This document shows, in pieces, positions 1,161-12,780 of a stretch of 17,256 bases of DNA (the stretch's first letter is position 1; every line of letters starts with the position of its first letter). The notes below the pieces were generated by a model. That model was not told the origin of the DNA. It did no database searches and saw nothing but the letters and a program-made list of their open reading frames with translations. The DNA is taken from the NCBI GenBank assembly GCA_030615865.1, contig JAUWYK010000041.1, positions 1 through 17,256 of the forward strand. Direction: 5' to 3'. The DNA is from Dehalococcoidia bacterium (lineage in GTDB: Bacteria; Chloroflexota; Dehalococcoidia; Dehalococcoidales; JAUWYK01). The translations under genes were made by a program, and so were the position numbers.

Positions 1161-2738
1161 CTACCCCAAGATTCTATCCACCTCTTCTGTGTCCATATCT
1201 GATACAAGTGGAATACCGCTAACTCTGGAGGCTTCGGGAGTCAGCGCAGCGATGTCATTACGAGCTATGTGCTCAGGGGCGAACTTGCGACTTCCGGCCA
1301 TGAACTGGCGTAGGCCCTGGGCAAGCCGCTCGTAATAAGTGTAGAGCCCAATAGCCGAAGTCGGAATCTTCTCATAATCTTTGCCATACTCCCTTTTCAG
1401 CTCCTCAGCAGTAATAAAGACAGCTTCCCTCGTGTTACCAAATCGCTGCAGGTAAACAGGAAGTTCGCCATTATCTAGCGATTCACCGATAGTCTTACCC
1501 ACCATAGCCGCAGCGAGAGGTGCTCTTGCCATGCCGATGGCTTTCGCATAGGGAGAACATAGCGCCAAGCCCTTAAATATCTGGTCTTCCAGAACGAATC
1601 CACCAGCAAGTATAATGTCAGGCACGTATTCGCCCTTCTTGGCCAGACGAGTACAGTATTTATGGGCCAATGACCATAGTTCAATGCCAGGTACTCCCCA
1701 CTCGTTCATCATGCGCCACGGGCTCATGCCAGTGCCACCGCCGGCAGCATCGAGGGTAAGGTAGTCGATTTTTGCCAGGGAGGAGAACTTGACGGCGCGG
1801 GCAAGGTCTGCAGGCCTATAAGCACCGGTCTTAAGCGATATATGCTTGGCGCCAGCCTTCCGCAATTGGCTGACGGTCTCAATAAAGCCCTCTTTGGTAA
1901 CCATACCAACACGTGAGTGTCTCTCAAACTCAGTAAAGGCACCCTTTTTGAACACAGCTATCACGGCAGGGTCAAGCGGGTCAGGAAGGACAATATAGCC
2001 TCGTTGCTTGAGGAGTTGTGCCTTCTCAAGGCTCTTAATTTTGACCTCACCCCCTATATCCTTAGCTCCCTGTCCCCATTTCAGCTCCACCACATCAGCC
2101 CCGAGTTTCTCTATGGCATACTCCAGCACACCGAGACGGCTATCTTCAACATTTGCTTGTACGATAATGGCACCATAACCATCACGTTGCCATTCCTGAT
2201 AAAGTTTGACGCGCCACTCAAGCTCAGGTGAGTGGATCAATCTTTCCTTCCCTATCTTTGAGTCGACATCCATTCCGCACACATTCTCACCGATGGTAAG
2301 TGGTATCCCGGTCAGTGCAGCGCCGATGGCTAAACCCTCCCAGTTCTGCTTGGCGACATTGGTAGAACCCAGACCAGGAATAACGAAAGGTAATTTCAAC
2401 TTGATTCCGTTATCGTAGCCTAGCCTTGTCTCAAGATTGACGTTGGGAAAGATAGCCTTATCGGAGTCTTCCTCGATTCCAACAGCACCAACGGCCGTTC
2501 CCATAATATTGAAGTGGGACAAGTCAATCGGGTAGGCCTTTTGTGATGCAGTGGTAATGATACCGAATGGCTGCGGATATATAACCTCATGACCGCGGTA
2601 GGCACTCTTGCCAATTTCACACATACCGATGCAGCCTTCCACGCAAGTAACACACATTCCGCTTATCGGGCACCAGTCACTGCCTGTCCGGTTCTTGGTC
2701 AATGTCGAGGCTGTTGCATTTAACCTTGTCAGTGTCAT
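1161..2738 (-). CDS. FMN-binding glutamate synthase-like protein (GltB central-domain family)
   Basis: A 525-residue protein. Residues 20-40 hold five cysteines (23, 29, 32, 36, 40) in a pattern suited to an iron-sulfur cluster. The rest resembles the FMN TIM barrel of the glutamate synthase large subunit, with ELKWGQGAKDIGGEVKI (compare KxGQGAKPGxGG in GltB), LKTGAYRPADLARA and DAAGGGTGMSP. The glutaminase (GATase II) domain and the C-terminal GXGXG domain of full GltB are absent, so it cannot by itself take ammonia from glutamine. The start has an excellent site, AGGAGGTGA, 4 nt before the ATG. It follows NuoE-, NuoF- and ferredoxin-like genes that could feed it electrons from NADH. Glutamate formation is one option; another amination or redox reaction is equally open. 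Family firm, substrate unknown. Confidence 0.8.
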   Translation of the reverse strand: MTLTRLNATASTLTKNRTGSDWCPISGMCVTCVEGCIGMCEIGKSAYRGHEVIYPQPFGIITTASQKAYPIDLSHFNIMGTAVGAVGIEEDSDKAIFPNVNLETRLGYDNGIKLKLPFVIPGLGSTNVAKQNWEGLAIGAALTGIPLTIGENVCGMDVDSKIGKERLIHSPELEWRVKLYQEWQRDGYGAIIVQANVEDSRLGVLEYAIEKLGADVVELKWGQGAKDIGGEVKIKSLEKAQLLKQRGYIVLPDPLDPAVIAVFKKGAFTEFERHSRVGMVTKEGFIETVSQLRKAGAKHISLKTGAYRPADLARAVKFSSLAKIDYLTLDAAGGGTGMSPWRMMNEWGVPGIELWSLAHKYCTRLAKKGEYVPDIILAGGFVLEDQIFKGLALCSPYAKAIGMARAPLAAAMVGKTIGESLDNGELPVYLQRFGNTREAVFITAEELKREYGKDYEKIPTSAIGLYTYYERLAQGLRQFMAGSRKFAPEHIARNDIAALTPEASRVSGIPLVSDMDTEEVDRILG

Positions 2739-2796: not shown

Positions 2797-3462
2797 TTAG
2801 TAAACCTTATGGCCCCGTGGGCCGACACTATCAGAACATCCTGTGCATACAGGGCAGGTCTCGACGGGGACGAGATTCTGGCATCCTCCGCAGAGACCTT
2901 CTACGAGATTATCCGCTGTGCAGGCTCGCTCACAAACCGGGCATATCCACTCACAACCACCACAGTTGCGGCACTCCTCCGGAGTGACCTCAAACGCGGT
3001 TGCCACCCGCCGTGACGTGCCACGGCCAACGAATCCGATGCCACCAGATTTCATCTGCTCTTTGCAGTAGCGTACACAAAGTCCGCAGAGAATGCAGCCC
3101 TTGTCTTTTATCTTAAAACGAACCTTATTGATTCCTATGTTTGCCGCCATATCCTGCAGCGTTTTGGAGTTCGGGCACGAAGCAAGCAACAGTTCAACGA
3201 TCAGCTTGCGCGCTTTGCTCACCTTCTCTGAGTTCGTAAGGATCACTTGTCCCTGCTCCACTGGTAGAGTACAGGACGCTTCCAGTGATGAGCGATTGCC
3301 GTTAAGCACCTCAACTATGCAGACACGGCAGGCGCCATAAGGGCTGAGACCGGGATGATAACAGAGAGTTGGAATGATAATACCCATTTCTGTGGCTGCT
3401 TCAAGAACTGTGGTTCCCTCCACCGCTCTTGTTTTGATTCTGTCGATTGTCAGTTCAACCAC
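2797..3462 (-). CDS. 2Fe-2S/4Fe-4S electron-transfer subunit (NuoG/HoxU/HydA N-terminal type)
   Basis: A 221-residue protein. The N-terminal ubiquitin-like 2Fe-2S domain has the cysteine pattern CYHPGLSPYGACRVC plus a later Cys (about residues 33-64). Two 4Fe-4S motifs follow, CILCGLCVRYC and CRNCGGCEWIC. The cluster-N3 type motif (HPxDCxxC) usual between these domains is absent. The C-terminal 50 residues add further cysteines (GLCGGC, ETCPVCTGC), perhaps a metal site. No catalytic domain is present, so it is best read as a carrier linking the NuoEF-like pair upstream to the FMN protein downstream. The start is GTG at 3462 with AGAGGA 7 nt ahead; the gap from the NuoF-like stop is 12 nt. Confidence 0.8.
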   Translation of the reverse strand: MVELTIDRIKTRAVEGTTVLEAATEMGIIIPTLCYHPGLSPYGACRVCIVEVLNGNRSSLEASCTLPVEQGQVILTNSEKVSKARKLIVELLLASCPNSKTLQDMAANIGINKVRFKIKDKGCILCGLCVRYCKEQMKSGGIGFVGRGTSRRVATAFEVTPEECRNCGGCEWICPVCERACTADNLVEGLCGGCQNLVPVETCPVCTGCSDSVGPRGHKVY

Positions 3463-3474
3463 GCTTTTTCCTCT

Positions 3475-5334
3475 CTAGGATACCGTGATTGCATCAAACT
3501 TGCAGCTGTCACGGCAAAGCCCACACTTGATACACTTTTCTTGGTCAATCCTATGCAGCTTTTTCTTCTCGCCTGATATTGCCCCCTGCGGGCATTCCCT
3601 GACGCATACTCTGCAGCCGGTGCATTTCTCCTCGTCGACGGTGAAGATAATAAGCACCTTGCAGACGCCTGCTGGGCAGCGTTTCTCTCTTATGTGCGCC
3701 TCATATTCATCACGGAAATACCTGATAGTTGAGAGAACAGGATTGGGAGCTGTGCCACCGAGAGCACAAAGAGAGGCATCCTCGATAAGATTGCCAAGCT
3801 CTTCTAGAAGTTCGATATCTTCTTGCTTACCTCTTCCTTCCGTTATGTCGGTCAGAATATCAAGCATCCTGTCCAGTCCCTCGCGGCAGGGGACACATTT
3901 GCCGCAAGATTCCTCAGTCAGGAACTTGATGAAATATCTGGCTATATCCACCATACAGGTGCCTTCATCCATGACTATCATGCCACCTGAGCCCATCATT
4001 GACCCTGCCTCGGTAAGCCTGTCGAAGTCAACTGGCAGGTCTATCAGACTCTCGGGGAGACAACCGCCTGAAGGACCTCCTGTCTGAACAGCTTTGAATT
4101 TCTTGCCATCGGGGATTCCACCGCCAATCTCGTAGATTATCTCTCTGAGCGTAATGCCCATGGGCACCTCAACCAGCCCGGTATTATTTATCTTACCCAC
4201 CAGAGAGAATATTTTGGTACCCTTGCTCCCCTCAGTACCGATTTGCGAGTACCAGTCGGCGCCACGGTTAATTATAAGAGGCACGTTTGCCCACGTTTCG
4301 ACGTTATTGAGGTTGGTAGGCTTGCCGTTCAATCCGCTTACCACAGTGTGAATGTGCTTGGGGCGTGGCTCGCCTATCTTGCCTTCTAGGGAAGCCATGA
4401 GCGCCGTCGATTCACCGCAAATAAAGGCACCGCCACCCCGTGAAATCTTAATATCAAAGTGGAAACCAGAGCCGAGGATGTTCTCTCCAAGAAGACCGTA
4501 TTCTCTCGCCTGCTTTATCGCTATGCTCAGATTGGTCACCGCCAAGGGGTATTCATGCCGGACATAGACATACCCTTCATGCGAACCTATTGCGTAGGCG
4601 CCGATTATCATTCCATCAATGACGCTGTGGGGGTCCCCTTCAAGAAGACTCCGGTCCATGTAAGCACCAGGGTCACCCTCATCAGCGTTGCAGATAACAT
4701 AGCGTGTGCCGTCTGGTGACGAAGCATTGCGGCAGCTCTCCCACTTCCTGGCGGTAGGGAAGCCCCCACCGCCGCGCCCACGCAGCCCTGATTGCCTGAT
4801 TTCTTCGATTACCTCCTCGGGCTGCATATTGAAGAGCACCTTAGGTAGAGCTGAGTAACCACCTATAGCAAGGTAGTCCTCAATCTTATGCGGGTCTATG
4901 AGTCTGTTACTATCAAGCAAGAGCCTATTCTGTTTACCATAGAAAGGTATATCCTGCTCACGGATAATCTTTTTCCCTGTAGCGGGATCTCGGTAGAGAA
5001 GTCTTTTAATGACCTTATTCTTGATTACTGATTCCGAGATTATCTTTGTAATATCGGCAGGGGTAACTTGTTGATAGAGAATTCTTTCAGGATATATGAC
5101 AACCACAGGCTCTATTTCACAGAAGCCATGGCACCCTGTTGTTCTGACATCAATGGAATCCTTAAGACCGAGGTCACTCAGTGCCTTAGAAATAGCTTGT
5201 GCAACGTCTGTGGCACCGCGCACAAGTCCGCACGTTCCGACACTAGTAACAACACAAGTACGGTTTGGGTCGCACTGGCTCAGAATCTCATCCCGCAACT
5301 GCTTCAGTTCGTCTGCTGTCTTCAACCTCTTCAT
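3475..5334 (-). CDS. NuoF/HydB-like NADH-binding flavoprotein with C-terminal ferredoxin domain
   Basis: A 619-residue iron-sulfur flavoprotein. The N terminus (about 1-110) is a thioredoxin-like 2Fe-2S domain with four Cys (CVVTSVGTC, then GCHGFC). The NADH and FMN core follows: GRGGGGFPTARKW, VICNADEGDPGAYMDR, GGGAFICGESTAL and GGPSGGCLP. Next come the 4Fe-4S motif ESCGKCVPCREG and, in the last ~60 residues, two 4Fe-4S motifs (CTGCRVCVREC and CIKCGLCRDSC). This order is that of HydB and HndC, subunits of NAD-linked hydrogenases and flavin-based bifurcating enzymes, and is longer than respiratory NuoF. The first 47 nt overlap the NuoE-like gene, implying translational coupling. No H-cluster hydrogenase subunit lies in the window; the partners appear to be the ferredoxin and FMN proteins downstream. 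Confidence 0.88.
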   Translation of the reverse strand: MKRLKTADELKQLRDEILSQCDPNRTCVVTSVGTCGLVRGATDVAQAISKALSDLGLKDSIDVRTTGCHGFCEIEPVVVIYPERILYQQVTPADITKIISESVIKNKVIKRLLYRDPATGKKIIREQDIPFYGKQNRLLLDSNRLIDPHKIEDYLAIGGYSALPKVLFNMQPEEVIEEIRQSGLRGRGGGGFPTARKWESCRNASSPDGTRYVICNADEGDPGAYMDRSLLEGDPHSVIDGMIIGAYAIGSHEGYVYVRHEYPLAVTNLSIAIKQAREYGLLGENILGSGFHFDIKISRGGGAFICGESTALMASLEGKIGEPRPKHIHTVVSGLNGKPTNLNNVETWANVPLIINRGADWYSQIGTEGSKGTKIFSLVGKINNTGLVEVPMGITLREIIYEIGGGIPDGKKFKAVQTGGPSGGCLPESLIDLPVDFDRLTEAGSMMGSGGMIVMDEGTCMVDIARYFIKFLTEESCGKCVPCREGLDRMLDILTDITEGRGKQEDIELLEELGNLIEDASLCALGGTAPNPVLSTIRYFRDEYEAHIREKRCPAGVCKVLIIFTVDEEKCTGCRVCVRECPQGAISGEKKKLHRIDQEKCIKCGLCRDSCKFDAITVS

Positions 5335-5812
5335 ATTTCCTATCCCTCGGGATTCTCTTCTGTTGCTTAAGGACCTTCTTGACCTTGCCGGGGCTCATCT
5401 GTCCATGGTAGTTACCATCTATAACCATGATAGGCCCTAAAGCGCATGCTCCCAGGCAATTAACAGTCTCCAGTGAGAACTGCATATCTTTGGTTGTCTC
5501 ACCCGGATCAACGCCTAATTGTCTTTTCACTTCGTCGAGCACAGAAGGAGCCCCGCGCACGTGACAGGCCGTACCCAAGCAACAAGTGACTATGTGTTCA
5601 CCCCGCGGCTTTAAGCTAAATGCCTTGAAAAAGGTGGCCACACTATAAGCCTGTATCAGCGGGAGTTCCAACTGGCTCGCTACTGCTCTTAAGGCTTCTT
5701 CTGGCAGATAATGGTACTCGGATTGTATGTCCTGAAGTATTGAAACAAGACTGTCGCGGTTACCACCGCATTTACTGATTATTGCCACCACTCTTTCAGA
5801 ATTACTCTTCAC
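5288..5812 (-). CDS. NuoE/HydC-like 2Fe-2S thioredoxin-fold subunit
   Basis: A 174-residue protein. The helical N-terminal region contains SILQDIQSEYHYLPEEAL and AYSVATFFKAF, both typical of the NuoE family. The thioredoxin-like 2Fe-2S domain has its ligands in CCLGTACHVRGA (Cys78, Cys83) and VNCLGACALGPIM. It normally pairs with the NuoF-type flavoprotein to oxidise or reduce NAD(H). The charged C-terminal tail (KYEEVEDSRRTEAVAG) is encoded in the overlap with the next gene. The start is GTG at 5812 with only a weak upstream AAAGG. It follows hisF by 30 nt. Confidence 0.88.
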   Translation of the reverse strand: MKSNSERVVAIISKCGGNRDSLVSILQDIQSEYHYLPEEALRAVASQLELPLIQAYSVATFFKAFSLKPRGEHIVTCCLGTACHVRGAPSVLDEVKRQLGVDPGETTKDMQFSLETVNCLGACALGPIMVIDGNYHGQMSPGKVKKVLKQQKRIPRDRKYEEVEDSRRTEAVAG

Positions 5813-5842: not shown

Positions 5843-6613
5843 TTAGATTCGTACAGGTATCCCCTTCTTTTTAAGGTATTCCTTGGCTTCGGGTATAGAT
5901 ATTTCTCCAAAGTGGAAGATGGAAGCAGCCAGCACTGCTGCTGCTTTACCTATCGTTACTGCCTCATAAAGATGCTCTAGTTTGCCAGCACCGCCTGAAG
6001 CTGTAACCGGTATTGTTACCGCCTCCGCTACCGCTTTTGTCATTTCCAAATCGTAGCCTTGTTTGGTACCGTCAGCATCCTTGCTAGTGAGCAAAATCTC
6101 GCCAGCTCCCAGCTCCTCCACCCGCGTTGCCCAATCCACAATTCCTATCCCCGTAGCCTCTCCTCCGCTCCTGACTACCACTTCCAATCGGGGACGGCCA
6201 CTAACATCTGAATTCCTCTTGCCATCAATGGCAACAACAACTTTCTCCTTGCCAAACCGCTTCGAGGCTTCCTTTATGAGTTTGGGATTCTTCACAGCGG
6301 CGGTATTGATTGAGACCTTGCTCACACCAAGGTAAATCAGTGCCTTCATATCCTCGATACTACCTATGCCACCACCTACGACAAAGGGAACAGTGACTAC
6401 GTCAAAGACCCTTTTGACCCATTCCAATCTCGTTCTTCTATTCTCAACAGTAGCAAAGATGTCGAGGAAGACAAGTTCGTCTGCCCCCTCTCGACAGTAT
6501 GTTTCCGCTGCCTCCACTGGGTCACGGGCGTCCCGCAGGTTGATAAAGTTTACCCCCTTGACCACCCTCCCCGCTTTGATATCCAGACAAGGTATGATTC
6601 TAACTCTTTCCAT
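5843..6613 (-). CDS. hisF: Imidazole glycerol phosphate synthase cyclase subunit HisF
   Basis: 256 residues, the normal length of HisF, which uses ammonia delivered by HisH to convert PRFAR to imidazole glycerol phosphate and AICAR in histidine synthesis. Catalytic Asp11 is in IIPCLDIK and the second catalytic Asp is in VVVAIDGKR. The phosphate-binding parts of the (beta/alpha)8 barrel (VVGGGIGS, TASGGAG) are present. A small departure is DIFATVENRRT where DITAS is usual. The first 14 nt overlap the end of nrpR, so translation is likely coupled. No hisH or other his gene is in the window; here hisF sits in a regulated nitrogen/redox operon instead of a his operon. Confidence 0.95.
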   Translation of the reverse strand: MERVRIIPCLDIKAGRVVKGVNFINLRDARDPVEAAETYCREGADELVFLDIFATVENRRTRLEWVKRVFDVVTVPFVVGGGIGSIEDMKALIYLGVSKVSINTAAVKNPKLIKEASKRFGKEKVVVAIDGKRNSDVSGRPRLEVVVRSGGEATGIGIVDWATRVEELGAGEILLTSKDADGTKQGYDLEMTKAVAEAVTIPVTASGGAGKLEHLYEAVTIGKAAAVLAASIFHFGEISIPEAKEYLKKKGIPVRI

Positions 6614-7610
6614 TTAACAACTCTTGAAACTTGATTAAGTCCCGATATTCCAGCACAGTGCTCATGGCATGGTTCTCAGCTTCAATGCCAGCTTCCTGAG
6701 CGGCTGCCACAGGATTCAAACCGCCAAGGAGAATTACCCCTATTCGATTAAGTTCCACCGGGATTTCACACACTGGTTCACTGAGATTCCCCATTATCAA
6801 AAGGCCTTCCAGTCCAGCCTCTTTGAGCTTGGTTACTACCTCCTCAGCTATCGTCCGGCATAGGGCCGGTATCTCGCGAAAGTTGGCTAGTATTTTCCCC
6901 TCGCCTTTTCTGACTACCTCTGTCACAGAGGTCATCCCGGCTCTAATGAATACCTCTGAAGGGTCGAGGGAGGAGCCAGCATAGTGGATGAGTTCCACAA
7001 AGCGAAGTGGCCGATGGTCACGAATCTGAAGAAGGCCCCCGAATCTGGAGTCAATAGGAACTCCTGCCTTAAGCAAGGTGCCATTGACCACAATGCTGCA
7101 AACTGTAGCCAACCCCACCTTGCTCCGGGGAACGATTAACTCACCCAACCTCTCACCCTCTTCGGCTACCGCTACCAAGTGACTAACGCAAAGCCCCTTG
7201 GTAAAAGCAGGCCTCATTGCCTCGAGCGCCTCGCTGAATTGTGCCTTCGGAAAAAGGGAGACGTTGACTGGGATAGAACCAGTGCGATTCTGCGGGTCAA
7301 AACTAGTGCGGCAGGCAAGTAGCTCAATATTAGAAATAGCAAAACCAATCTTGTCCTTAACCAGAGCGTCCCTTACCTCCTCGATCCCCTGTTCGGTGAG
7401 CACCCGACCATCCCGTCGCCCCACAAGCTGGGTTAACCCACGCTGGTCCATTAGCTTGAGGTGATATCTCACGGCCCTTTCGCCCAGTTCAATCCCGTAG
7501 TCTTTTAAGCGACGAGCAATAACCCTAGCTCCCAGCGTCCCCTGAGAGTCGCTCAAAACCTTCAAAATCGCGATCACCTTTCGCTCCACATCTTGCGTTT
7601 CAAAGCCCAT
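6600..7610 (-). CDS. nrpR: NrpR-family nitrogen regulator (winged helix plus NrpR/DUF128 domain)
   Basis: About 336 residues. The N-terminal winged helix (about 8-75: IAILKVLSDSQGTLGARVIARRL, then ERAVRYHLKLMDQRGL) is followed by one NrpR effector domain containing SIVVNGTLLKAGVPIDSRFGG and a GMTSVTEVV segment. In methanogens NrpR represses nitrogen-fixation and ammonia-assimilation genes by binding GGAA-N6-TTCC and is released by 2-oxoglutarate; bacterial homologues are uncommon. It is the first gene of a minus-strand operon whose promoter carries just such a palindrome at 7647-7662, so self-regulation is likely. The start may be ATG 7610 or the adjacent GTG 7613; GGAG lies 9 and 6 nt ahead respectively. 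Confidence 0.88.
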   Translation of the reverse strand: MGFETQDVERKVIAILKVLSDSQGTLGARVIARRLKDYGIELGERAVRYHLKLMDQRGLTQLVGRRDGRVLTEQGIEEVRDALVKDKIGFAISNIELLACRTSFDPQNRTGSIPVNVSLFPKAQFSEALEAMRPAFTKGLCVSHLVAVAEEGERLGELIVPRSKVGLATVCSIVVNGTLLKAGVPIDSRFGGLLQIRDHRPLRFVELIHYAGSSLDPSEVFIRAGMTSVTEVVRKGEGKILANFREIPALCRTIAEEVVTKLKEAGLEGLLIMGNLSEPVCEIPVELNRIGVILLGGLNPVAAAQEAGIEAENHAMSTVLEYRDLIKFQELLNGKS

Positions 7611-7646
7611 CACAATACACTCCGATGACCTGTCTTGCAGGGTTAC

Positions 7647-7662
7647 AGGAAACTGTTTTCCT
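7647..7662. promoter_or_regulatory. Putative NrpR operator, AGGAAA-CTGT-TTTCCT
   Basis: A perfect palindrome with 6-bp arms and a 4-bp centre that contains GGAA-ACTGTT-TTCC, an exact match to the operator GGAA-N6-TTCC established for Methanococcus NrpR. It starts 1 bp downstream of the minus-strand -10 box (7664-7669) and covers the predicted transcription start (about 7657), an ideal position for repression of the operon that begins with nrpR. Confidence 0.72.
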
Positions 7663-7663
7663 T

Positions 7664-7692
7664 ATTTTACTCGCCCTAAAGCAGTCTGTCAA
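7664..7692 (-). promoter_or_regulatory. Promoter of the nrpR-hisF-nuoEF operon
   Basis: On the minus strand, TTGACA (7692-7687) and TAAAAT (7669-7664) are separated by exactly 17 bp. The predicted start is near 7657, giving a leader of about 45 nt before nrpR. No other good promoter was seen within the seven-gene run, so this probably transcribes all of it. Confidence 0.75.
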
Positions 7693-7798: not shown

Positions 7799-7844
7799 CA
7801 TACTAAAAGTGACATAAACTATTACCATCTTTAGGAGTTTGGCC

Positions 7845-9617
7845 TTGTCTGAGGATAAAAAAGGTCAAAGTGGTGACCTATTCATTGTAGACAACAGTGA
7901 CGTAGACTGGAAAGTAAAGCGTTATCTCCAAGAATGGGCTGATATTGCCCACTCTTTTGACATAGCTACTGGTTTTTTTGAGATTGGTGCGCTACTTGTA
8001 CTAGATGGCCAATGGCAGAAGCTCGAAAAACTAAGGATTCTAATGGGCAATGTAGTGTCAATGCGCACCAAGAAGGCTTTAGTAGCCGGTATTGAGGCTG
8101 CAAAAAAGACACTCGATACGAGTATTGAAAACGAAAAAGAGGAAAACGATTTTCTCATAGGCGCCCCCGCTATCGTTGAGGCCATACGAAGTAAACAGAT
8201 CCGATGTCGCATCTACACCAAAGATAAGTTCCATGCCAAAGCATACATAACACATGCAAAACAGGCCGTGGTTGGATCATCGGCACTTGTTGGCTCGAGT
8301 AATTTAACGATCCCAGGCTTGACTACAAACGTTGAGCTAAATATCCAGCTCCGACATGAAGTTGAACTGTTGCAGGACTGGTATGAGCGCCATTGGAAAG
8401 AAGCTGAGGATATCTCAGAAGAGATTCTCAAAGTCATTGAACGACATACCCGTGAATACTCACCTTTCGAGGTCTATGCCAAGTCCTTGCAGGAGTTCTT
8501 CCGAGGTCACGAGATGACCGCCGGAGAGTGGGAGCTCACCGGCCCAGAAAATGGTGGCTCCCATGTATATCGTGTCCTTGACCAGTACCAGAAAGAGGGA
8601 TATCAAGCCCTCATGAAAATTGCTCGCCAGCATAGTGGTGCTTTTCTGTGTGATGGTGTAGGGTTGGGTAAAACTTTAATTGGGCTGATGGTAATAGAAC
8701 GTCTTATCATGTACGAGAGAAAGCGTGTTGTACTTTTAGTGCCCCTAGCGGCGCGTAAACCCGTATGGGAACAACATCTTCGGCGTTATTTACCTCATAT
8801 GGGTGGCGACTTCAGCAATTTGGTCATTCTTAATCACACTGACCTACTTAGGACCGGAGAATTTCCTGCTCGTTTCCAACGGATTAAAGATATGGCCGAT
8901 GTAATTATGATAGATGAGGGGCATCACTTTCGCAATCCAGGAGTCAGAGGCAAGTCTCGATACTGGCAACTCTTCGAGATCTGTGAAGGAAAGACTGTTT
9001 TCTCTCTAACAGCGACTCCGGTTAACAACAGCTTGAGAGACCTTCAGCATATGATCGAGTTGTTCTCTCAGCGACAGTCTAACTACTTTCAAACAGCACC
9101 CTTGGGAATCCATTCCTTACCTGGTTATTTCAACAGATTGGAAAAGGAATTGGACAATATTATCGCCGGTGAAAAAAATAATGGTACAGCACCTGTGTCT
9201 GAGACAAACCAAGTGGAGGCTGAGAGTGTTCTATTAAATGACTTACTTTTCAGAGCTCTGGTAGTACAACGTAGCCGGGCATATGTTAAAAGAAGCCAGG
9301 AACAGCAAGATAGTACAAAGGCCATTTTCCCGAAGAGAGAAGACCCGAAAGTTGCCAAATATTCGATAAAACAGACCTACGGTAATCTTCTTACCATTGT
9401 GGAAACCGCTTTTGCTAAAGACAAGCCACTATTCTCATTAGCAATGTATTACCCGCTAGCCTACTATAAAGGGCCTAATACAGATATCGATCCAATGTTG
9501 GAGGGCCGCCAGAAGCAAGTTGTTGGTCTCATCCGAATATTATTTCTGAAACGATTTGAGACATACCTTTGCCAGTTTAATGTTACTACGTGGGGCCAAG
9601 CCAAAGGTTATCAGTGA
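7845..9617 (+). pseudogene. PLD-like nuclease/SNF2-type helicase, truncated and fused out of frame to integrase DNA
   Basis: The N-terminal ~200 residues resemble a phospholipase D-like nuclease domain (KFHAKAYI, then GSSNLT, as in half of an HKD motif). A superfamily 2 helicase follows: Walker A DGVGLGKT, VVLLVPLAARKPVWEQ (motif Ia region), Walker B VIMIDEGHHFRNP and motif III SLTATPVNNSLRDLQ. The reading continues to LIRILFLKRFE, after which 18 residues translate the integrase fragment in the wrong frame before a stop. The second RecA domain (motifs IV-VI) is missing, so ATP-driven activity is unlikely. Full-length relatives are roughly 1,000 residues and often sit in defence or restriction islands, so this may be a decayed anti-phage gene. 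A TTG start at 7845 is best spaced from AGGAG (7833-7837); TTG 7839 is also in frame. Confidence 0.75.
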
Positions 9618-9798
9618 AGCTCTGGGGCATAGCTCCGTAGCCTTTACAATGGACGTCTACAGCCATATAATTGAGGGGATGCAAGAGGATGCTATGGTGT
9701 TACTGGACGAAGTGTTACCGGCAGGGGTAAACGGGGTATCTCAAAAAAATAACGCCAATTTAACGCCAATTCTCCCTAAAACGGGGGTGAATAACTGA
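9550..9798 (+). pseudogene. Tyrosine recombinase (integrase), C-terminal fragment
   Basis: The reading NDLRHTFASLMLLRGAKPKVISEALGHSS, then TMDVYSHI, is the end of the catalytic domain of a phage-type integrase: box II (usually HDLRHT), LGHSS and the catalytic Tyr in DVYSH. The frame is closed by TGA at 9547-9549, so only about 82 codons remain; the N-terminal arm-binding and core-binding domains and the first catalytic Arg are lost. The box II His is replaced by Asn exactly at the junction with the helicase gene. The 3' end overlaps the arm-type repeats and stops 13 nt before tRNA-Trp, the usual place for an integrase beside its attachment site. It cannot be active alone. Confidence 0.88.
9748..9769 (+). 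repeat. Second copy of the arm-type repeats (right)
   Basis: AATAACGCCAA followed by TTTAACGCCAA. Positions 9750-9769 are identical to 596-615. They lie within the last codons of the integrase fragment, 42 nt from the 39-bp attachment repeat. Confidence 0.6.
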
Positions 9799-9810: not shown

Positions 9811-9849
9811 TAGGAGTGTAGCTCAGTTGGGAGAGCAGCGGTCTCCAAA
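9811..9849 (+). repeat. Right copy of the 39-bp direct repeat (attR-like), within tRNA-Trp
   Basis: Identical to 440-478. It supplies the whole 5' half of the intact tRNA-Trp. TTTAGCTT at 9801-9808 lies just outside it and mirrors AAGCTAAA just outside the left copy (483-490), so in a circular form the two would flank the core as an inverted repeat. Confidence 0.82.
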
Positions 9850-10279: not shown

Positions 10280-10558
10280 CTACCCACGACGTGCTATTTC
10301 CTCTACCAAGATAAGGTAATCCACAAATGGCCAAGACTGGCCACCATATTCCTTGGGCCAGAATAGAGATAGCCATCCCTTATTCCCCAGTTTACGTGCT
10401 ATATCTTTGAATACCTGCCAGCCATCACTACTATCGACGACATGGTCGCCGGATGTACCTCCCAAATAGCCCACCCAACCCGGTGGCAACTCGGCATCCA
10501 GAAAAGCACGAACTTCCTGCCGGAATCTCTCCTGCTCCACGGTAAATTCAAAATTCAA
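10280..10558 (-). pseudogene. Acyl-CoA dehydrogenase N-terminal fragment
   Basis: The 92-residue reading (NFEFTVEQERFRQEVRAFLD, then WLSLFWPKEYGGQSWPFVDYLILVEEIARRG) matches the N-terminal helical domain of acyl-CoA dehydrogenases, including the W/GG segment usual in this region. It stops just after EEIARRG, whereas the family runs to about 380 residues; the FAD-binding and catalytic parts are absent, and I see no continuation downstream (10191-10279). The apparent start is TTG with no spaced ribosome site. This is a remnant. Confidence 0.75.
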
Positions 10559-11499: not shown

Positions 11500-11631
11500 G
11501 TGATTGATTGAAGAATAGGGATGCGATGAACCAGAGTCTGCATGTGGTCACCTAGGCTCTGGGGAGCAAATGGTGAAACCGGCCCTAGGGGGTCGGTTTT
11601 TTTTGAGCATCACCAGGAGGAAGGAGGATGT
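11500..11631 (+). promoter_or_regulatory. Structured pilT leader, possible attenuator or riboswitch of unrecognised class
   Basis: A stem CCAGAG (11531-11536)/CTCTGG (11557-11562) closes a 20-nt loop and is followed by a terminator hairpin before the ribosome site. GGTGA at 11572-11576 can pair either with TCACC at 11548-11552 in that loop or with TCACC(A) at 11610-11615 next to the Shine-Dalgarno sequence; the two pairings exclude each other. I compared it by eye with the main riboswitch consensuses, including both c-di-GMP classes, fluoride and T-box, and none fits. Confidence 0.45.
11578..11604 (+). terminator. Intrinsic terminator in the pilT leader
   Basis: ACCGGCCC pairs with GGGTCGGT (8 bp, one G-U) around TAGG, followed by eight T (11597-11604). 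It stands 27 nt before the pilT start codon and downstream of the only visible promoter, so pilT expression must pass it. That points to conditional termination; a promoter further upstream whose transcripts end here is the alternative. Confidence 0.75.
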
Positions 11632-12780
11632 TTGTCAGTGCACAAAGTAAATGGATTCCGTGAAATTCTGGAACTGGTGGTTAAAAAGGGAGCTACTGAT
11701 TTACACGTCAAGGTGCCAAGCCCACCTGTACTCCGTATCGATAGCGTACTTGTTCCTCAAGAAGAATGGCCATCGTTTACCGCCAAAGATATCGAGGTGA
11801 TATTTGAAGAAATTACTACTCAAGAGCAGAGAGCGACTTTTAGTAGGGAATGGGAGCTAGACTTTGCCTATAGTGTGCCCGGCCTGGCTCGATTCCGAGT
11901 TAACGTACTGCAGCAGAGAGGCACAATGAGCCTTGCCTTCCGGCTGGTGCCATCTAGCGTGCCATCGATTGATGAATTAAGACTGCCCCAAATTTGTAAA
12001 GAGCTTATTCTCAAGCCAAGAGGACTCATCCTGGTCACCGGTCCTGCCGGGAGCGGCAAGTCAACCACCTTGGCAGCAATGATCAATCATCTCAACGAGA
12101 ATGAGACTCGAAGTGTGATTACCATCGAAGACCCGATTGAATATCTATTCCGCGACAAAAAATGCATCATCCGGCAACGAGACCTGAGGGATGACACCAA
12201 ATCCTTCTCCGCCGCCTTAATACACGCCCTCCGCCATGACCCGGATGTGATTGTTATCGGAGAGATGCGTGACTTAGAGACGATAAGCACAGCTATCACT
12301 GCGGCTGAGACCGGTCATCTGGTGCTGGCGACACTACACACGGTTGACGCTGCCCAGTCAATTGACCGCATAATTGATGTATTTCCCCCTGGCCAACAAC
12401 GTCAAATGAGACTACAGCTATCACAAGTAATAGAAGCAGTACTATCACAGACCCTGTTGCCTCGTAGTGGGGGAGGACGAATAGCTGCCTTTGAAATTAT
12501 GCTTGCCAATAGCGTAATCAGAAGACTTATCCGTGAAGAGAAAATACATGAAATAGCCGCTAACCTGGAGATGGGTAGATTGGAGGGAATGCAGACCCTA
12601 GACCAGGCGCTGGCTGACCTGGTCAAAAGTGGAATTGTCTCACCAGAAGAAGCCATGATGAAAACCAGCAATCCAGTAAAGTTGAATGAGTTACTGCAAG
12701 TTGAACAAGACGCCCCCACCACCTATGGAGCGGTACAACCCGTTCTGAATATTGCCAATGGAATCTCTTTTAACCGCTAG
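11632..12780 (+). CDS. pilT: Type IV pilus twitching ATPase PilT
   Basis: About 382 residues. The N-terminal PAS-like domain (ELVVKKGATDLHVKVPSPP) is followed by the secretion-ATPase core: Walker A GPAGSGKST (about residue 137), Asp box ITIEDPIEYLF, Walker B DVIVIGEMRD and His box LVLATLHT. The C terminus carries NSVIRRLIREEKIHEI, equivalent to the AIRNLIRE motif needed for retraction in PilT. PilT is the hexameric motor that pulls pili back. The frame is open upstream through the terminator hairpin, so the start was set by AGGAGG (11622-11627), giving TTG 11632 or GTG 11638. No other pilus gene is in the window; it sits alone between tRNA genes. Confidence 0.92.
   Translation: MSVHKVNGFREILELVVKKGATDLHVKVPSPPVLRIDSVLVPQEEWPSFTAKDIEVIFEEITTQEQRATFSREWELDFAYSVPGLARFRVNVLQQRGTMSLAFRLVPSSVPSIDELRLPQICKELILKPRGLILVTGPAGSGKSTTLAAMINHLNENETRSVITIEDPIEYLFRDKKCIIRQRDLRDDTKSFSAALIHALRHDPDVIVIGEMRDLETISTAITAAETGHLVLATLHTVDAAQSIDRIIDVFPPGQQRQMRLQLSQVIEAVLSQTLLPRSGGGRIAAFEIMLANSVIRRLIREEKIHEIAANLEMGRLEGMQTLDQALADLVKSGIVSPEEAMMKTSNPVKLNELLQVEQDAPTTYGAVQPVLNIANGISFNR

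What the first reader, a model, noticed from the sequence alone, without database searches (positions are those of the whole stretch)
7647..7692. NrpR-type operator over the start site of the operon that encodes NrpR, in a bacterium
Seen: minus-strand promoter TTGACA-17 bp-TAAAAT, then AGGAAACTGTTTTCCT, a perfect palindrome containing GGAA-N6-TTCC, placed on the predicted start. Known: archaeal (Methanococcus) NrpR binds GGAA-N6-TTCC and is released by 2-oxoglutarate. Inferred: the bacterial NrpR here keeps the archaeal operator and represses its own operon under nitrogen sufficiency. If so, protein and DNA site were kept or transferred together across domains.
Basis: partly seen in the sequence, partly recalled or inferred. 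Interest (0 to 1): 0.75.

Follow-up and report, generated by a model that had tools for sequence, protein, structure and literature searches.

The report
Bacterial NrpR nitrogen operator and regulon
A short DNA palindrome on the start site of a bacterial nitrogen-repressor gene recurs in front of the same repressor and of glutamate-making operons in many related bacteria, so it is very probably the binding site of that repressor, a relative of one studied so far mainly in methane-making archaea.

Summary
The site is real and almost certainly an NrpR operator, but its consensus is not quite the archaeal one. The window (Chloroflexota, Dehalococcoidia-like) has TTGACA-17-TAAAAT, then GGAAAACAGTTTCC over the expected start of nrpR-hisF-nuoE-nuoF-nuoG-gltB. 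It is not a perfect palindrome (6-bp arms, non-palindromic 4-bp centre) and alone could be chance (49 of 200 shuffles have one). Comparison decides: 68 of 77 nrpR upstreams among the closest relatives, from two phyla, carry it (leave-one-out matrix, 1% null). The bacterial consensus is GGNAA-N4-TTNCC (53 of 68); 11 of 68 fit archaeal GGAA-N6-TTCC. An extra CC lies 7 bp downstream in 35 of 54. The site also heads glutamate-synthase operons, several running on into amt-glnK-glnA: 11 of 13 in nrpR-bearing genomes, 0 of 6 in nrpR-less ones. In Deltaproteobacteria the gene after nrpR is a glutamate dehydrogenase (7 of 8 loci) or gltB. The 4 nifH genes found have no convincing site. Against: in a class-wide sample only 8 of 30 nrpR genes read carry their own site. 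Binding, repression and 2-oxoglutarate release are inferred. New variant of a known kind.

The parts
7648..7661 (-). NrpR operator core, GGAAAACAGTTTCC on the minus strand; fits both bacterial GGNAA-N4-TTNCC and archaeal GGAA-N6-TTCC
   Evidence: matrix score 24.8, highest in the window (the window site is one of the 54 the matrix was made from)
7641..7645 (-). third half-site TAACC, CC 7 bp beyond the core's CC (positions 20-21)
   Evidence: CC at 20-21 in 35 of 54 nrpR-upstream sites against 2.4% background; for the window
7664..7669 (-). -10 element TAAAAT
7687..7692 (-). -35 element TTGACA, 17-bp spacer
6600..7610 (-). nrpR: winged-helix HTH plus a single NRD domain
5843..6613 (-). hisF, overlaps the end of nrpR
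   Evidence: TIGR00735 331 bits, cut-off 294.55
5288..5812 (-). NuoE-like [2Fe-2S] subunit
3475..5334 (-). NuoF-like flavoprotein subunit with ferredoxin domain
2797..3462 (-). NuoG/HoxU/HydA-N-like iron-sulfur subunit
1161..2738 (-). GltB-like FMN (glutamate synthase) domain protein
   Evidence: PF01645 1e-11; its orthologues follow nrpR in many loci

Best explanation
The palindrome is the operator of the bacterial NrpR encoded just downstream. An NrpR dimer binds GGNAA-N4-TTNCC lying over the transcription start, probably helped by a second, overlapping contact at the CC 7 bp downstream, and blocks RNA polymerase. Under nitrogen limitation 2-oxoglutarate accumulates, binds the NRD domain and releases NrpR. 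This derepresses nrpR itself and the glutamate-forming module in its operon (hisF, nuoEFG-like, gltB), giving negative autoregulation. Elsewhere in relatives the same site heads Fer4-(hisH)-pyridine nucleotide oxidoreductase-gltB-module operons, several of which run on to amt-glnK-glnA. Shown here: site, placement, conservation, targets, co-occurrence with nrpR. Inferred: binding, repression, 2-oxoglutarate response, the second contact.
For: 68 of 77 nrpR upstreams (150 bp) hold the site by leave-one-out matrix above the 99% null. In a search over all words of one shape GGNAA-4-TTNCC is in 54 of 77; the best word in 20 shuffled sets reached 6. The site starts after a gap of 1-2 bp from the predicted -10 in 28 of 54. 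Targets not used to make the matrix: in the 60-genome class sample, Fer4-headed gltB-module operons carry the site in 11 of 13 nrpR+ genomes and 0 of 6 nrpR- (Fisher 0.001). Strict pattern by genome: 16 of 24 nrpR+ against 3 of 36 nrpR-, p 2.7e-6; reversed-pattern control 8 of 24 against 5 of 36, p 0.11; these tests treat related genomes as independent. The 12 of 23 strict hits that I class as heads of nitrogen operons are all in nrpR+ genomes. In 30 nrpR genomes, 30 of 37 strict hits head nrpR, gltB-module operons or a gltB-like operon that also holds nrpR. In the 8 Deltaproteobacteria loci the gene after nrpR is a glutamate dehydrogenase in 7 and gltB in 1. Archaeal NrpR controls nif and glnA, and probably glnK-amtB, through GGAAN6TTCC (PMC2723118, passages).
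Against: Only 8 of 30 nrpR genes read (of 33 found) in the class sample have a site (score 13 or more) within 220 bp; some of the rest lie inside gltB-module operons with their own head site, and by my count over, 6 of 24 nrpR+ genomes showed no nitrogen-operon site (not every nitrogen operon of theirs was read). 7 of 37 and 11 of 23 strict hits lie elsewhere and look like chance (reversed-pattern hits 13 and 15). Two nrpR+ genomes (G021, G056) lack the core site at their gltB-module operon, and one nrpR-less genome (G029) has a weak match (13.6, GG replaced by TG) 1.7 kb upstream of its diverged gltB glutaminase gene. The amt-glnK-glnA clusters of L200 (a single-contig genome), L202 and L215 have no strict site upstream as far as fetched. 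The 77 upstreams are the closest relatives (best 80 of 334). No binding, expression or ligand data exist here.
Confidence: 0.86

Rival explanations
1. The site belongs to another regulator that shares these promoters, for example a LacI/GalR-type protein (central CG, AAACGGTT) or the OmpR-type regulator encoded in the amt-glnK-glnA operon.
For: The core GG.AA.CG.TT.CC recalls LacI-family operators (recalled, not from a call); an OmpR-type C-terminal domain protein sits in many of these operons, and an OmpR-like ORF (29% identity) lies beside the site in L327.
Against: Presence of the site follows nrpR; it sits on nrpR's own promoter in two phyla; of the window operon's six proteins only NrpR has a DNA-binding domain in Pfam. 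LacI-type genes were not searched for.
Confidence: 0.08
2. NrpR binds the site, but the effector or sign differs: for instance it answers to glutamine or ADP/ATP-PII state, or does not autorepress.
For: No ligand residue could be tested; bacterial NrpR has one NRD domain and only distant identity to archaeal NRDs (27% to the Methanothermococcus protein).
Against: Site over +1 argues for repression; archaeal NrpR is released by 2-oxoglutarate (PMC4902934, passages); targets are enzymes that use 2-oxoglutarate.
Confidence: 0.2
3. Chance palindrome in an AT-rich promoter, without function.
For: One or more GGAAN6TTCC is found in about a quarter of shuffled windows.
Against: Conservation in 68 of 77 upstreams and at other operons.
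Confidence: 0.02

Closest known systems
NrpR of Methanococcus maripaludis with its nif/glnA/glnK-amtB operators (GGAAN6TTCC)
   Same: Same protein family (PF01995), 14-bp GG-N10-CC palindrome, placement at the promoter, ammonium-assimilation targets (glnA, amt, glnK).
   Different: Bacterial consensus GGNAA-N4-TTNCC with free position 3/12; third CC 7 bp downstream; sigma-70 promoters; operon targets are glutamate synthase or dehydrogenase, no convincing nif site found; nrpR itself often carries the site, whereas archaeal NrpR levels are reported not to be nitrogen-regulated (PMC9765008, passage).
Overlapping NrpR operators of the M. maripaludis glnK promoter (Lie et al. 2010; only its title was seen, in a reference list; contents recalled)
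   Same: More than one half-site pair in one promoter, overlapping.
   Different: Here the overlap is an extra CC at 20-21 (35 of 54) with GG at 8-9 (27 of 54; both in 18), inferred from conservation only.
NrpR homologues noted in Dehalococcoides as lateral transfer (PMC1852104, passages)
   Same: Same bacterial class and protein family.
   Different: The passages seen report the gene only; no operator, target or operon.

Membership tests
NrpR | NRD regulatory domain (PF01995) | tested here: met
   282.8 bits, cut-off 25; 3NEK E 1e-26
NrpR | N-terminal winged-helix DNA-binding domain | tested here: met
   HTH_12 68.4 bits, cut-off 21.4; helices and wing strands in residues 11-80 of the model, blocks at pLDDT 66-84, although the whole model is poor at 57
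NrpR | 2-oxoglutarate-reversible DNA binding | not testable with these tools
   needs protein
NrpR operator | GGAA-N6-TTCC | tested here: met
   window site fits exactly
NrpR operator | GGAA-N6-TTCC as the consensus of the whole bacterial set | tested here: not met
   11 of 68; the set's consensus is GGNAA-N4-TTNCC, 53 of 68
NrpR regulon | glnA / amt / glnK under the operator | tested here: met
   head site, then gltB modules, amt, glnK, glnA on one strand in L196, L197, L199, L206 (glnA cut by the contig end) and, with a non-strict site, L201; in L198 two opposite-strand ORFs lie between. That they are one transcript is inferred.
NrpR regulon | nif under the operator | tested here: not met
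   4 of 294 class genomes have nifH over cut-off. Within 1.5 kb of nifH (1.2 kb to the contig start in L296) three have no matrix hit of 8 or more; L296 has one weak hit (9.8) about 760 bp upstream, inside another ORF. A head site further away is not excluded.

The most novel reading that the evidence does not exclude
Bacteria of at least two phyla run an autoregulated NrpR switch with its own operator code (GGNAA-N4-TTNCC plus an overlapping half-site) whose core job is not nitrogen fixation but the 2-oxoglutarate-to-glutamate step, with glutamate synthase and two kinds of glutamate dehydrogenase exchanged behind the same operator; nif control would then be a special case within NrpR control.
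Probability: 0.5. Interest if true: 0.72.

Novelty: new variant of a known kind. Interest (0 to 1): 0.6.

Why it matters
NrpR is the textbook archaeal nitrogen repressor. Its bacterial homologues look very numerous (7,042 of 8,000 scored candidates matched the window protein) and some are named Chloroflexota, Nitrospirota or Poribacteria, yet my paper searches listed none giving them a binding site or target. A site and regulon make a functional prediction for a large group of mostly uncultured anaerobes, give a ready gel-shift probe, and let one ask how a repressor and its operator drift together between domains.

Tried and rejected
Archaeal GGAAN6TTCC as the search motif: too narrow for the bacterial set (11 of 68). 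GGMAANNNNTTKCC genome-wide: below its reversed control in 2 of 8 genomes; in four single-contig genomes GGNAANNNNTTNCC gave 56/41/69/56 hits against 49/31/46/56 reversed, so the regulon looks small and a loose motif is useless genome-wide. nif as target: no support. Viral contigs: no relative. Pattern CGGCARNNNNTTRCCG in 8 Deltaproteobacteria genomes: 45 matches, 17 reversed; of 28 loci read, 5 lie by a gene of my reference set, in all five nrpR. AlphaFold model of NrpR: mean pLDDT 57, so no fold search was made. Comparison of the archaeal recognition helix: the archaeal query found 8 proteins, and the one with an archaeal name shows no HTH at the same place; extending from its HTH-bearing hits led to proteins whose names, where given with an organism, are bacterial. 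Archaeal genomes: no handle, so transfer was not tested.

Limits of the counts. The 80 loci are the best of 334 by similarity to the window protein; 77 sequences including the window have 150 bp upstream, 4 loci were dropped for lack of it. The 30 genomes were picked from loci whose nrpR upstreams I had already seen, so the 23 nrpR-head hits are partly circular. The matrix was trained on nrpR upstreams only. In the glutamate-synthase test, one search hit 27 of 60 genomes: 21 close hits were used; 6 distant ones (34-37% identity: G016, G017, G020, G035, G052, G059, all nrpR+) were left out, of which G016 and G017 have a strict site at the head of that operon and the heads of the other four were not read. 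Of the 8 nrpR-less hits, 2 (G026, G029) are diverged and have no Fer4 match, so their operon head is unknown; one search's figure of 0 of 8 (p 0.0002) includes them and I do not rest on it. Class sample: 30 of 33 nrpR matches were read.

Full report
Observation. On the minus strand the window reads TTGACA-17-TAAAAT-AA-GGAAAACAGTTTCCTGTAACC. The promoter scores 11 of 12. The 16-mer at 7647-7662 is an interrupted, not a perfect, palindrome (12 of 16 self-complementary). GGAA-N6-TTCC occurs once in the window; 49 of 200 shuffles also have at least one, so by itself it proves nothing. The gene behind it is NrpR by Pfam and by its sole PDB match, MJ0159, and stands first in a tight run nrpR-hisF-nuoE-nuoF-nuoG-gltB. 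Two close homologues are named Chloroflexota.

Conservation. One scan of genome contigs gave 334 relatives, of which the best 80 were kept: 72 titled Dehalococcoidia, Chloroflexi or the like and 8 titled Deltaproteobacteria or Syntrophaceae. With the window, 77 have at least 150 bp upstream. A search over all words of the form XX-N-XX with any gap of 0-20 returned GGNAA-N4-TTNCC in 54 of 77; the best word in 20 shuffled sets reached 6. A matrix, refined leave-one-out, finds the site in 68 of 77 at a 1% null. Of the nine without, in six nrpR follows hisF (L037, L040) or the gltB GXGXG module (L056, L076, L077, L080), and in L026 it follows gltB; L005 falls just short (7.6 against 8.06) and L007 has none. 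Outside the site the flanks carry little information apart from the -10 region and the extra half-site.

Consensus. In the 68 sites G is kept at 1 and at 2 in 67 each, A at 4 in 68, A at 5 in 61, T at 10 in 67, T at 11 in 63, C at 13 in 68 and at 14 in 65; position 3 is A in 25, C in 35, T in 8 and position 12 T 30, G 28, A 10. The archaeal consensus (GGAAN6TTCC, PMC2723118, passages) is met by 11 of 68. The centre is ACGG or ACAG in 35 of 54. Beyond the core, CC at 20-21 appears in 35 of 54 against 2.4%, GG at 8-9 in 27 of 54, both in 18, so a second 14-bp frame shifted by 7 bp overlaps the first. I recall that the M. maripaludis glnK1 promoter has overlapping NrpR operators; that paper was not held.

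Regulon. In 30 nrpR-bearing genomes the strict word GGHAAACRGTTDCC gave 37 hits against 13 for the reversed pattern. Of the 37, 23 head nrpR, 6 head an operon Fer4-(hisH)-oxidoreductase with gltB modules behind it where the fetched stretch reaches that far, 1 heads a run with FlpD/MetV-type genes, gltB-like modules and nrpR, and 7 lie elsewhere. Several of the gltB-module runs continue into an OmpR-type regulator, amt, glnK and glnA. In two genomes nrpR and glnA diverge from one intergenic region with the site (L208, L209).

Controls. A class sample of 60 genomes, drawn evenly by the tool, gave 23 strict hits (15 reversed). 24 of the 60 have nrpR. By genome, 16 of 24 with nrpR and 3 of 36 without have a hit (p 2.7e-6; reversed pattern 8 of 24 and 5 of 36, p 0.11). 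Twelve of the 23 hits head nitrogen operons by my classing, all twelve in nrpR genomes; the four hits in nrpR-less genomes head none. The gltB glutaminase module was then sought in the same 60 and the heads of its 21 close hits read: 11 of 13 in nrpR genomes have a site (10 at score 18 or more, one at 14.8) within about 235 bp of the Fer4 match; 0 of 6 Fer4-headed ones in nrpR-less genomes do (p 0.001). What was left out of this count is told under Tried and rejected. Against: only 8 of 30 nrpR genes read in this sample have their own site at score 13 or more. By my count over, 18 of 24 nrpR genomes show at least one nitrogen-operon site and six (G035, G037, G049, G052, G055, G064) none that I found, though not every operon of theirs was read.

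Other phylum. In the 8 loci titled Deltaproteobacteria or Syntrophaceae (Desulfobacterota in newer naming, recalled) nrpR is preceded by the site (none is among the nine without); it is followed by a glutamate dehydrogenase in 7 (three closest to the archaeal-type model, below its cut-off; four NADP-type, above cut-off) and by gltB in 1 (L070). So different 2-oxoglutarate-to-glutamate enzymes stand behind one operator.

nif. Of 294 class genomes, 4 have nifH over cut-off; three have no matrix hit of 8 or more within 1.5 kb and L296 one weak hit (9.8) about 760 bp upstream, inside another ORF. All four have nrpR. Of four single-contig genomes tested, three have a site about 70 bp before nrpR (scores 15.6-19.7) and the fourth none of 11 or more. 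One of the three is 1,469,720 bases long, which I recall as the length of D. mccartyi 195.

Mechanism. Shown: site on the expected +1, conserved, tied to nrpR. Inferred: NrpR binds, represses and lets go with 2-oxoglutarate, as in M. maripaludis (PMC4902934, passages). In archaea NrpR levels are reported not to respond to nitrogen (PMC9765008, passage), so autoregulation would be a bacterial feature.

Literature. Searches for NrpR with operator (20 of 37 listed), Chloroflexi, nitrogen-regulation terms (18, 20 of 29 listed), overlapping sites, Dehalococcoid, COG1693/Syntrophus, site terms, phylum names (88, ten of 1,049 listed, none with NrpR, so weak) and regulon plus glutamate synthase listed no paper that by title or abstract start gives a bacterial NrpR site or regulon. 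PMC1852104 notes the Dehalococcoides homologues as lateral transfer and PMC2723118 mentions 'certain Bacteria'; of these papers I saw passages only. Most subscription papers are not held.

Noticed in passing
window 11510-11593 (+): c-di-GMP-II riboswitch (67 bits) overlapping the 5' end of a T2SSE/PilT-like ATPase ORF 11542-12780; a later start codon is likely and the ATPase would then be under c-di-GMP control.
   Followed up: no
window 7839-9798 (+): PLD plus SNF2-helicase ORF resembling candidate anti-phage proteins (PADLOC HKD+Snf2, 1e-30, profile 31-459 of 948), perhaps truncated, followed by an ORF with a weak phage-integrase C-terminal match (just under cut-off) and tRNA-Trp at 9812.
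   Followed up: partly
window 10280-10558 (-): Acyl-CoA dehydrogenase N-terminal domain only (PF02771) in a 92-aa ORF, probably a gene remnant beside tRNA genes.
   Followed up: no
L196 8936-9607, L197 9602-10276, L201 12847-13521: OmpR-type C-terminal regulator (Trans_reg_C, tested in L201) in the amt-glnK-glnA operon: possibly a GlnR-like second nitrogen regulator.
   Followed up: no
L196, L197, L198, L201: HisH and HisF matches inside glutamate-synthase operons, and HisF right behind nrpR in the window; the reason is unclear.
   Followed up: no
L282 5905; L281 4950: Near-palindrome GGTAAACGGTTACC in two genomes (G016, G017) upstream of FlpD/MetV-type genes (Pfam tested in G016) with distant gltB-like modules downstream.
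   Followed up: partly
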